38,395 bases of DNA. It comes from Sedimenticola sp. Its GTDB lineage: Bacteria > Pseudomonadota > Gammaproteobacteria > Chromatiales > Chromatiaceae. Below are positions 1,674-32,559 of this stretch, piece after piece. The notes below the pieces were generated by a model. The model saw only the letters and a list, made by a program, of their open reading frames with translations. It was not told the origin of the DNA and ran no database searches. The number at the start of each line of letters is the position of its first letter. Within the stretch, counting starts at the first letter, position 1. Location of the stretch: positions 1-38,395 of the forward strand of contig JALSSX010000245.1 of the NCBI GenBank assembly GCA_026984055.1, read 5' to 3'. The position numbers were made by a program, and so were the translations under genes.

Positions 1674-1832
1674 TTAACCGGTATCCGTCCATGGACTTTT
1701 TCAACGACGGAGCCGGAAAATGCGATTTTCCGGCTCCTTCATTTTCAATGACTTGCCGTCATCGAAAATAGCGGTACATCCCCGTAGCGCACACAGGCCA
1801 TTGAAAAATGCCATTTTTCAATGGCCTCTTAG
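1674..1832 (+). repeat. Multi-hairpin intergenic element, copy A (subfamily 1, left hairpin degenerate)
   Basis: Ends with the 33-nt palindrome AGGCCATTGAAAAATG-C-CATTTTTCAATGGCCT. Colinear with the copies at 28389-28557 (reverse strand) and 31916-32086. Confidence 0.85.
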
Positions 1833-9309: not shown

Positions 9310-9458
9310 TTAGCAGGCCGTTGAAAAATGGCATTTTTCTCGTCGCAAAGAGGAAATACGATTGCCGCTATGCTCACATATTCCATCACTGATCATGATC
9401 GAAAAGGGTGGAACATCCCTGTCCCACTCGGGTATCTCGATTTTTTGAGATAACCTTA
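9310..9458 (+). repeat. Multi-hairpin intergenic element, copy B (subfamily 2)
   Basis: TTAGCAGGCCGTTGAAAAATGG...GGGTGGAACATCCCTGTCCCACTC...GGGTATCTCGATTTTTTGAGAT; colinear with copy C. Confidence 0.8.
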
Positions 9459-16929: not shown

Positions 16930-17127
16930 CTAAAGTGGATCTCGAAAAATGCCTTCCATGGCATTTTTTTCGTCGCTAAGAGAAAATGCGATTTCCGCTT
17001 TGCTCATATTTTCAATCACTTATTGTGGTCGAAAAGGGTGGGACATCCCTGCCCCACTCGGGCATCTCGATTTTTCGAGATGCCCTGGCAGGCCGTTGAA
17101 AAATGCCATTTTTAAACGGCCTGCTAG
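16930..17127 (+). repeat. Multi-hairpin intergenic element, copy C (subfamily 2 plus an extra terminal hairpin)
   Basis: CGAAAAATGCC-TTCCAT-GGCATTTTTTTCG; GTGGGACATCCCTGCCCCAC; GGGCATCTCGA-TTTT-TCGAGATGCCC; then GCAGGCCGTTGAAAAATGCCATTTTTAAACGGCCTGCTAG. Confidence 0.85.
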
Positions 17128-24270: not shown

Positions 24271-24322
24271 TTAGCAGGTCGTTGAAAAAGTCCATGGAAG
24301 GACTTTTTCAACATCCCGTTAG
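24271..24322 (-). repeat. Solo 52-bp copy of the intergenic element (terminal hairpin only)
   Basis: TTAGCAGGTCGTTGAAAAAGTCC-ATGGAA-GGACTTTTTCAACATCCCGTTAG. On the minus strand the loop reads TTCCAT, as in the long copies. Confidence 0.8.
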
Positions 24323-27971: not shown

Positions 27972-28453
27972 GGTTGGGTCTTGCGCACCGTGGCGTCGAA
28001 GAAGTTACAGATGCCGTTGTCCATGTGCAGAATCAGCGGCACTTTGTCGCCGGCCTTGAAGCGTTTCTCCGGATCGAACAGCATGATGTGCTTGCCGCCG
28101 GGTTCGAAACGGATTGAACCGCCAGGTGGAATCTCGACATCATCCAGATGGACCATGCGCGAGATGCCATTGTCCTCGACCGTGGCGTGCATCATGCTGG
28201 AACCGAATGCCGGGCTTGTCGCGGCGGTGATATGCACTGGCTTGTCGCTGTTGTTGTGAATGGTCAGATAAGCGGCGAGCACGCGTGCGTTCGGCGGCGC
28301 CTCGCGTATCCACGGACTCTCGATAGTGAGGATGTCGGCATGCCCGGCGACCGCAGCCAGGCTCAGCAGGCAAGCGGGCAGAAAATATCTAACAGGCCGT
28401 TGAAAAATAGCATCTTTCAACGGCCTGTGTGCGGTACAGGGAGGTACCGCCAT
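27968..28453 (-). CDS. PCuAC copper chaperone
   Basis: SPWIREAPPNARVLAAYLTIHNN...HATVEDNGISRMVHLDDVEIPPGGSIRFEPGGKHIMLFDP. Candidate starts are ATG 28453 or TTG 28420, both inside repeat copy D. Confidence 0.88.
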   Translation of the reverse strand: MAVPPCTAHRPLKDAIFQRPVRYFLPACLLSLAAVAGHADILTIESPWIREAPPNARVLAAYLTIHNNSDKPVHITAATSPAFGSSMMHATVEDNGISRMVHLDDVEIPPGGSIRFEPGGKHIMLFDPEKRFKAGDKVPLILHMDNGICNFFDATVRKTQP

Positions 28454-28557
28454 TTTCGATGACTGCAAGTCATTGAAAATAAAGGAGCCGGGGAATCGCA
28501 TTTTCCGGTTCCGTCGTTGAAAAAGTCCACGGAAGGACTTTTTTAACATCCTGCTAA
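28389..28557 (-). repeat. Multi-hairpin intergenic element, copy D (subfamily 1)
   Basis: Reverse complement TTAGCAGGATGTTAAAAAAGTCC...GCGGTACCTCCCTGTACCGC...GGCCGTTGAAAGATGCTATTTTTCAACGGCCTGTTAG is colinear with copy E. Confidence 0.88.
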
Positions 28558-31382: not shown

Positions 31383-31805
31383 ATGAGCATGATTCGTTAC
31401 AACCCATGGGATATCTTCGATGCGGTGGAGCGCGCTTTCGTGCCCCAGGGCGTTCAGAACTCGGCTGAAAAACCGGCGAACTGGGTGCCTGTCGTGGATA
31501 TCCGCGAGGAGGAAGACAAATTTGTCATCAGCGCCGATATTCCTGGCGTGAAGCCAGATGACATCGACATCCAGACGGAGAACAAAGTGCTGACGCTGAA
31601 AGGCGAACGCAATATCGAGAACAAGGAAGAAAAGGAAGGCTACATCCGTCGAGAGCGTATCAGCGGTTCCTTCGAGCGCAGTTTCCGCCTGCCGGACGTC
31701 GCCGATCTGGAAAATATCGAGGCGAAATACGAGAATGGTGAACTGCATATCACCGTGCCGAAGCGCAAGGAAGCCGCCGCGCGCAAGATCGAGGTGAAGC
31801 ACTGA
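31383..31805 (+). CDS. Hsp20/alpha-crystallin small heat-shock protein
   Basis: VDIREEEDKFVISADIPGVKPDDIDIQTENKVLTLKGER...SFERSFRLPD...YENGELHITVPKR. Confidence 0.96.
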   Translation: MSMIRYNPWDIFDAVERAFVPQGVQNSAEKPANWVPVVDIREEEDKFVISADIPGVKPDDIDIQTENKVLTLKGERNIENKEEKEGYIRRERISGSFERSFRLPDVADLENIEAKYENGELHITVPKRKEAAARKIEVKH

Positions 31806-31915
31806 TCAATTTCTTTCCCCCGTGATGACAGTGGCGCTACCGGGTAACCGTTGGCGCCGTTTTTCTGCGATATAGGCATGGGAATGCGCGTTGGAATCAC
31901 CGGTTTTCCAGCGCT

Positions 31916-32086
31916 TTAACAGGATGTTGAAAAAGTCCTCCCATGGACTTTTTCAACGACGAAATCGGAAAATGCGATTCCTGGTTCCTTCATTTTCAAT
32001 GACTTGCAGTCATCGAAAATGGCGTACATCCCTGTACCGCACACAGGCCATTGAAAAATGCCATTTTTCAATGGCCTGCCCGCTAA
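31916..32086 (+). repeat. Multi-hairpin intergenic element, copy E (subfamily 1, most complete)
   Basis: TTAACAGGATGTTGAAAAAGTCC-TCCCAT-GGACTTTTTCAAC...ATTTTCAATGACTTGCAGTCATCGAAAAT...GTACATCCCTGTACCGC...33-nt palindrome...GCTAA. Confidence 0.88.
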
Positions 32087-32145
32087 TCTTTACATGATCT
32101 GGGGGCGCGGCGCATCATGAGCGTGAGCGGCGATAAGATTGAAGA

Positions 32146-32559
32146 TCAAAGGCTGGGCTTGCGCCGCAGTGCCTTGGTGCGGCCATGGCGGGTCTTGCTG
32201 TCCATGCGGCGGCGTTGCGAGCCACGTGTCGGCCGGGTCGGCTTGCGCTTCTTTTGCACGCTGTTCGCTGCGAGGATCATCTCGCTCAGACGCGCCAGCG
32301 CGTCGGCGCGATTCTTCTCTTGGGTGCGATGGCGTTGTGCCTTGATGACGATCACGCCATCCTTGCTGATGCGCCGGTCGGCGGATGCCAGCAGGCGTGT
32401 CTTCAGACTTTCCGGCAGCGACGAGGCGCGAATATCGAAACGCAGATGCAACGCGCTGGATACTTTGTTGACGTTCTGGCCGCCAGCGCCCTGGGCGCGG
32501 ATCGCGGAGAATGCCAGTTCGTCCTCAGGGATGCGCAAATGAGGGGATAGGATTAGCAT
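32146..32559 (-). CDS. arfB: Alternative ribosome-rescue factor ArfB (YaeJ)
   Basis: GGQ motif FSAIRAQGAGGQNVNKVSSALHLRFD and basic C-terminal tail. ATG at 32559 (ORF-track start is further upstream). Confidence 0.94.
   Translation of the reverse strand: MLILSPHLRIPEDELAFSAIRAQGAGGQNVNKVSSALHLRFDIRASSLPESLKTRLLASADRRISKDGVIVIKAQRHRTQEKNRADALARLSEMILAANSVQKKRKPTRPTRGSQRRRMDSKTRHGRTKALRRKPSL

What the first reader, a model, noticed from the sequence alone, without database searches (positions are those of the whole stretch)
31916..32086. Type copy of a serial multi-hairpin intergenic element family (A, B, C, D, E plus one solo)
About 171 bp holds successive hairpins: H1 GTTGAAAAAGTCC/GGACTTTTTCAAC (perfect 13 bp), H2 around AAAATGCGATT, H3 ATTTTCAATGACT/AGTCATCGAAAAT (one mismatch), H4 around CATCCCTG, and H5, a 33-nt perfect palindrome. 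Ends look like inverted YTARCAGG...CCTGYTAR. Related copies lie at 1674-1832, 9310-9458, 16930-17127 and 28389-28557, about one per 7-8 kb. All are intergenic apart from gene ends discussed separately. That density suggests many genomic copies. It could be a MITE/REP-like element, a structured RNA or a 3'-UTR module. I do not know whether the family is catalogued.
Basis: partly seen in the sequence, partly recalled or inferred. Interest (0 to 1): 0.75.

Follow-up and report, generated by a model that had tools for sequence, protein, structure and literature searches.

The report
Jumping repeats carrying CsrA-like RNA hairpins
The stretch is one of roughly 300 copies of a small jumping DNA element that, read from its minus strand, folds into an RNA with two hairpins shaped like the sites bound by the global regulator CsrA, and the same design recurs across many Proteobacteria, so a mobile repeat may be spreading binding sites for a master regulator.

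Summary
The element at 31916-32086 is one of roughly 300 intergenic copies in its genome. Borders are sharp, and left and right YTAR tetramers match in 29 of 36 copies with YTAR at both ends (0 of 10,000 shuffles). It is therefore a MITE, with an IS5-type target. In another genome such elements share end motif and YTAR duplication with a resident IS5-family IS. The parent IS was not found in this genome.

The new part is the core. On the minus strand it folds into four hairpins. Two of them, H4 and H1, carry C-ANGGAN-G or CAGGA(U/C/A)G loops, the published CsrA/RsmA-binding motifs. A covariance model finds the core in 61 of 276 genomes of its class and in about 28 genomes of another class. Stems differ widely, yet 42 of 46 pairs show double changes (622 cells against 169 shuffled). 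Both GGA loops persist in 47 of 52 genomes. G-U outnumbers A-C on that strand. Ends are exchangeable around the same core.

No Rfam match and no described counterpart was found. CsrA binding, transcription and benefit are inferred, not shown. Individual copies decay almost neutrally without orientation bias, so selection seems to act on the spreading lineage.

The parts
31916..31919 (.). Left target-site copy TTAA (YTAR class)
   Evidence: in the family, left and right YTAR are identical in 29 of 36 copies with YTAR on both sides (shuffled mean 17.8, maximum 26 in 10,000)
31920..31934 (+). Left terminal inverted repeat CAGGATGTTGAAAAA
   Evidence: Sharp border in the alignment of 64 copies; partner of CAGGCCATTGAAAAA read from the right end
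31926..31957 (-). H1: 13-bp stem; in the family consensus, minus-strand hexaloop AUGGAA closed by C-G (this copy has AUGGGA); CsrA-type GGA hairpin and right-hand terminal hairpin of the RNA
   Evidence: GGA in the H1 loop in 51 of 52 genomes
31961..31988 (-). H2: A/U-rich upper stem with conserved triloop C-R-C (AAAUCGCAUUU / AAACCACGUUU); ligand unknown
31991..32021 (-). H3: 13-bp stem, strongly covarying
   Evidence: 12 of 13 pairs with double changes
32022..32040 (-). H4: minus strand GUAC-AGGGAU-GUAC, a full match to the SELEX consensus for CsrA (RUACARGGAUGU)
   Evidence: A(2.0 bits) N(0.3) G(1.7) G(1.9) A(2.0) N(0.7); motif described in PMC7652899
32044..32078 (.). H5: terminal palindrome CAGGCCATTGAAAAATGCCATTTTTCAATGGCCTG, right end of the DNA element (5' end of the GGA-strand RNA)
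32083..32086 (.). Right YTAR (CTAA), displaced by CCCG in this copy
28389..28557 (+). Best-preserved copy in the window, opposite orientation (GGA strand = plus); core 28431-28547, 120.8 bits; CTAA duplicated on both sides
1674..1832 (-). Copy A, part of H1 truncated; core 1673-1790, 88.9 bits
16930..17127 (-). Copy of the second subfamily (end GGATCTCGAAAAA; different stems, same GGA loops) joined to a solo H5 palindrome; core 16941-17057
9310..9458 (-). Second-subfamily copy with a mixed left end; core 9320-9427, 62 bits
24272..24322 (+). Solo H1 hairpin (CCAUGGAAGG loop on the plus strand) with TTAG on both sides

Best explanation
This is a non-autonomous, IS5-type miniature transposon (MITE) of about 160 bp. 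Its cargo is a structured RNA module encoded on the minus strand of this copy. In the order of transcription the RNA is H5 (terminal hairpin), H4, H3, H2, H1. H4 and H1 present the CsrA/RsmA recognition loop (C-ANGGAN-G or C-AGGAN-G), with H3 and H2 as structural spacers between them. An IS5-family transposase acting in trans moves the element into YTAR sites and leaves a 4-bp duplication. When a copy lies in a transcript in the right orientation, the RNA should capture a CsrA dimer. Hundreds of copies would then form a dispersed sink for CsrA, or place nearby transcripts under Csr control. Shown here: the MITE anatomy and target duplication, the conserved RNA fold, strand preference, loop signature, breadth, and exchange of ends around one core. 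Inferred: that CsrA is the ligand, that the copies are transcribed, and that this helps the element or its host. Because single copies decay almost neutrally, I think selection acts on the source copies that spread, for example by making insertions tolerable or regulated, and not on each insertion.
For: MITE: sharp borders and duplicated YTAR; 599 end matches against 0 control; near-identical copies with duplicated YTAR in a closed genome. In that genome five copies of an IS5-family IS (NF033581, E=1e-105) have related ends and YTAR flanks. IS5 targets YTAR (PMC10359306). RNA: 42 of 46 pairs have double changes; 622 cells against 169 shuffled; covariation score 0.665 against 0.197 shuffled and about 0.1 slid. 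An alignment of relatives found by DNA similarity gave 62 against 21.6. Strand: G-U 41 against A-C 14 (p=0.0004); fold energy lower on the GGA strand in 42 of 52 (p=3e-6). Loops: both GGA in 47 of 52 genomes, none on the other strand; the H4 profile is A-N-G-G-A-N closed by C-G; 0 of 151 other hairpins in this genome have CANGGANG. Motif definitions: PMC7652899. csrA is present in this genome. Cargo conserved while ends change: in G133, two end types frame the same core.
Against: No binding or expression data. No orientation bias relative to genes: tandem contexts 20 same to 29 opposite, and 14 to 17 in other genomes, so no systematic cis role. Copies in this genome show no extra purifying selection at the A/GGA sites (0.035 against 0.044, p=0.41). 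The stems are longer than most SELEX winners (four or fewer pairs), and the two GGA loops lie about 90 nt apart in sequence, beyond the 63-nt bridging limit reported for CsrA, unless H3 and H2 fold up between them. The covariance model was trained on sequences with GGA loops, so it may under-sample copies without them. No promoter within the element was recognised. The parent IS was not found in this genome.
Confidence: 0.6

Rival explanations
1. A MITE whose hairpins work at the DNA level: the GGA strand folds as single-stranded DNA and the loops are read by a transposase or a host DNA factor during transposition; the likeness to CsrA sites is coincidental.
For: G-T is better tolerated than A-C in DNA hairpins too, so the strand asymmetry fits. 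Selection seems to act on spreading copies only. The H1 and H5 stems overlap the terminal repeats. Solo H1 and solo H5 hairpins bear YTAR on both sides.
Against: The YTAR duplications point to ordinary double-strand cut-and-paste by an IS5-type enzyme. The GGA loops are internal and persist when the ends change type. Base by base the loop profile is that of the CsrA/RsmE site, variable Ns included. The bias to the G-rich, leading-like strand is not significant (31 of 49).
Confidence: 0.2
2. A structured 3'-UTR or read-through RNA module (mRNA stabiliser, RNase target or attenuator) whose GGA loops serve another RNA-binding protein or none.
For: Strong RNA-type covariation. In tandem gene pairs the copy lies nearer the 3' end of the upstream gene in 35 of 49 cases. 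The H2 triloop C-R-C is conserved as well, which hints at a second ligand.
Against: No orientation preference relative to the upstream gene. The only tool-recognised terminator-like site is no more than shuffles give. The hexaloop fits CsrA precisely.
Confidence: 0.12
3. A REP/BIME-type family moved by a RAYT (Y1 HUH) transposase.
For: Abundant intergenic palindromes.
Against: No Y1_Tnp match in the genome, while the controls respond. Target duplications of 4 bp are not made by HUH enzymes (established knowledge).
Confidence: 0.02

Closest known systems
CsrB/CsrC and RsmX/Y/Z regulatory RNAs
   Same: Hairpin loops with ANGGAN or CAGGA(U/A/C)G that capture CsrA/RsmA dimers (PMC7652899)
   Different: Those are few-copy sRNA genes. 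This is a mobile intergenic repeat in hundreds of copies with two GGA loops. No Rfam family matches
TwoAYGGAY (RF01731) and Bacillaceae-1 (RF01690) RNA motifs
   Same: Two CsrA-motif hairpins in one conserved RNA of unknown function (PMC4333381)
   Different: Proposed there as CsrA-binding sRNAs of Clostridia and of Bacillales/Lactobacillales. Not found by cmscan here. The passages read do not describe them as transposable
IS5-family MITEs
   Same: Short, no gene, inverted ends, YTAR duplication, related ends on a resident IS5-family IS in other genomes
   Different: Carries a conserved, covarying RNA core that outlives changes of the ends
Correia elements, P. fluorescens intergenic repeats, REP/BIME
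   Same: Abundant intergenic palindromic repeats; some P. fluorescens families are MITE-like (PMC2718517)
   Different: No RAYT gene here. No CsrA-type loops were found described for them in the held library. Correia ends (from memory) differ

Membership tests
MITE of IS5 type | Short multicopy element without a transposase gene | tested here: met
   About 160 bp; several hundred copies; no predicted gene spans the 88 copies
MITE of IS5 type | Terminal inverted repeats | tested here: met
   CAGG..GTTGAAAAA at both ends
MITE of IS5 type | YTAR 4-bp target duplication | tested here: met
   29 of 36 identical, 0 of 10,000 shuffles as high; perfect in several G144 copies
MITE of IS5 type | Autonomous IS with the same ends in the same genome | tested here: inconclusive
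   Related ends with an IS5-family transposase in G144 and G106; not found in this fragmented assembly
CsrA/RsmA-binding RNA | GGA in the loop of short hairpins, ANGGAN or CAGGAN | tested here: met
   Both loops in 47 of 52 genomes; profile
CsrA/RsmA-binding RNA | RNA-level structural constraint on the GGA strand | tested here: met
   Covariation, G-U over A-C, lower energy
CsrA/RsmA-binding RNA | Host encodes CsrA | tested here: met
   One csrA, E=1.6e-24; common in the class, so weak evidence
CsrA/RsmA-binding RNA | Binds CsrA; is transcribed | not testable with these tools
   Needs protein and RNA work
CsrB/RsmZ sRNA families, TwoAYGGAY, any Rfam family | Covariance-model match | tested here: not met
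   No match at gathering score in the window or in 12 distant loci; nothing relevant at E up to 10
REP/BIME with RAYT | Y1 (RAYT) transposase in the genome | tested here: not met
   No PF01797 match; controls respond

The most novel reading that the evidence does not exclude
A class of transposable elements, spread over at least two classes of Proteobacteria, carries a dedicated CsrA/RsmA-binding RNA as cargo, keeps it while swapping transposon ends, and so disperses hundreds of sites for a global regulator through each host genome: a mobile CsrA sponge.
Probability: 0.5. Interest if true: 0.9.

Novelty: new variant of a known kind. Interest (0 to 1): 0.78.

Why it matters
CsrA is a global post-transcriptional regulator, thought to be titrated by a few dedicated sRNAs. 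A mobile repeat that scatters hundreds of near-ideal CsrA sites would change how the CsrA budget of such bacteria is understood. It would also show how transposons can wire genes into a regulon. It explains a widespread set of multi-hairpin intergenic repeats that is not in Rfam, and gives a directly testable question: does CsrA bind them?

Tried and rejected
REP/RAYT: no Y1 transposase. IS1380 (PF13701): absent from this genome; ends of relatives' copies do not match. IS1182 or other DDE copies in this genome: only fragments without these ends. Known RNA family: none. Plasmid, phage or E. coli homologues: none at DNA level, one consensus searched. Cis 3'-UTR role: no orientation bias. Replication-strand bias: 31 of 49, not significant. 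Selection on single copies: not seen. Clean empty site in a Sedimenticola relative: the element is absent, but a different ~885-bp insert occupies the gap, so not decisive. A scan of viral contigs failed twice on the server. Literature on CsrA plus repeats or MITEs gave no description; the library lacks most subscription papers and preprints, so novelty is not proven.

Full report
What is there. The window is contig C245 of a 3.16-Mb, 325-contig assembly. A neighbouring Hsp20 is 94% identical to a Sedimenticola sp. MAG. The element lies between convergent genes, Hsp20 (31383-31805, +) and an RF-1-domain protein (32146-32559, -).

Family in this genome. I fetched 733 kb and found 64 near-full copies, aligned. 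The borders are CAGGATGTTGAAAAAGTCC ... CATTTTTCAAYGGCCTG, with YTAR directly outside. Among 36 copies with YTAR on both sides, 29 have the same tetramer left and right (shuffled mean 17.8, never 29 in 10,000). That is a target-site duplication. A covariance model finds 88 cores of at least about 55 bits, none inside a predicted gene. A second subfamily (16930 and others) has ends GGATCTCGAAAAA and different stems, but the same loop letters.

The core is an RNA, read from the minus strand. On that strand H4 reads GGUAC-AGGGAU-GUACC and H1 reads AAGUCC-AUGGAA-GGACUU in the family consensus. A recent review (PMC7652899) gives the SELEX consensus for CsrA as RUACARGGAUGU, usually a six-base loop with AC and GU pairing at its base. 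It gives the structural consensus as an ANGGAN hexaloop with variable Ns, and the CsrB repeat as CAGGA(U/A/C)G. H4 matches the first two; H1 matches the second or, in many other genomes, the third.

Breadth. DNA search found relatives in the same genus and family, and partial matches in other families of the class. I built a model of the H4-H1 core from 15 sequences that DNA search had brought in. It then hit 61 of 276 genomes of at least 90% completeness in the class. In a draw of 398 genomes of the phylum it hit 33, of which about 28 belong to another class. In the latter the stems are almost wholly different, for example GCAGGCC-AUGGAU-GGCCUGC for H4.

Covariation. In 56 distinct copies 42 of 46 pairs have changes on both sides, 622 cells against 169 in shuffles, covariation 0.665 against 0.197, and about 0.1 when partners are slid. 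That alignment was fitted to the model and so leans to it. The first alignment, made by MAFFT, already gave 62 against 21.6.

Strand. With pairing scored symmetrically, one copy per locus, G-U outnumbers A-C by 41 to 14 on the GGA strand. In this genome's consensus two pairs are nearly fixed as G-U on that strand, one in H3 and one in H2. The GGA strand folds better in 42 of 52 genomes.

Loops. GGA is in the H4 loop in 48 and in the H1 loop in 51 of 52 genomes, both in 47. Information per site in H4 is A 2.0, N 0.3, G 1.7, G 1.9, A 2.0, N 0.7 bits, closed by C 1.6 and G 1.8. Among 151 other perfect hairpins of this genome none has CANGGANG and 14 have GGA. The model had seen GGA loops in training, so absolute frequencies may be inflated. 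The stem changes are not affected by that.

Mobility and ends. In the closed genome G144 about 14 nearly identical copies sit between YTAR-type duplications. The same genome has five copies of an IS5-family IS with related ends and YTAR flanks. In G133 the same core is framed by two end types, CAG..GTTGAAAAA and GGAATCTCTGA. The H1 stem changes with the end and the GGA loop stays. In L137 and L149 a third end type, GAGGGTGTCGCAAA, appears with what look like 5-bp duplications. The core is thus conserved more than the ends, which argues that it is cargo with a function and not filler.

What does not fit a simple sponge or cis-regulator. Copies show no orientation bias relative to genes. In this genome single copies drift about 4% from consensus with no extra protection of the A/GGA sites. 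Selection therefore seems to act on the copies that spread. The loops may help the element itself, for example by recruiting CsrA to read-through RNA and softening the effect of insertions, or they may be needed in transposition (the DNA-level rival). A host effect by total dose remains possible.

Membership. It passes the tests for an IS5-type MITE except that no parent IS was found in this broken assembly. It passes the sequence and structure tests for a CsrA-binding RNA, but binding and expression were not testable. It matches no Rfam family and has no RAYT. It works like a CsrA-binding RNA carried on a MITE. It is not a member of CsrB, RsmZ or TwoAYGGAY by model match.

Confidence. MITE 0.95; conserved RNA-type structure on the minus strand 0.85; CsrA as ligand about 0.65; a regulatory consequence in the cell about 0.5.

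Noticed in passing
Own-genome copies, e.g. L065:6637, L089:6471, L082:13887 flanks: Another repeat family with the end CCCGGATTTCTCACC abuts these elements at the YTAR junction (GGTGAGAAATCCGGG|CTAG|CAGG), suggesting a second MITE family with the same target preference or mutual insertion.
   Followed up: no
H2 in all copies (window 31961-31988): The H2 apex AAAUCRCAUUU with triloop C-R-C is nearly as conserved as the GGA loops across two classes; its ligand is unknown.
   Followed up: partly
L142, L211 (G053:C1:2569152-2569517): Three cores stand in tandem every 124 bp, which would make a six-GGA RNA resembling a dedicated CsrA-sequestering sRNA.
   Followed up: no
G019 (several contigs): About thirty short fragments of an IS1380-type transposase (DDE_Tnp_1_4), some in regular direct repeats of about 284 bp, look like a separate MITE or tandem array.
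   Followed up: no
L009:2773-3659 versus window 31867-32145: At the orthologous site of the type copy a related MAG lacks the element but carries an unrelated ~885-bp insert; this intergenic gap may be an insertion hot spot.
   Followed up: partly
window 16930-17127 and 24272-24322: Solo terminal hairpins (H5 alone, H1 alone) occur joined to other copies or alone between YTAR repeats, so single hairpins may themselves be mobile.
   Followed up: partly
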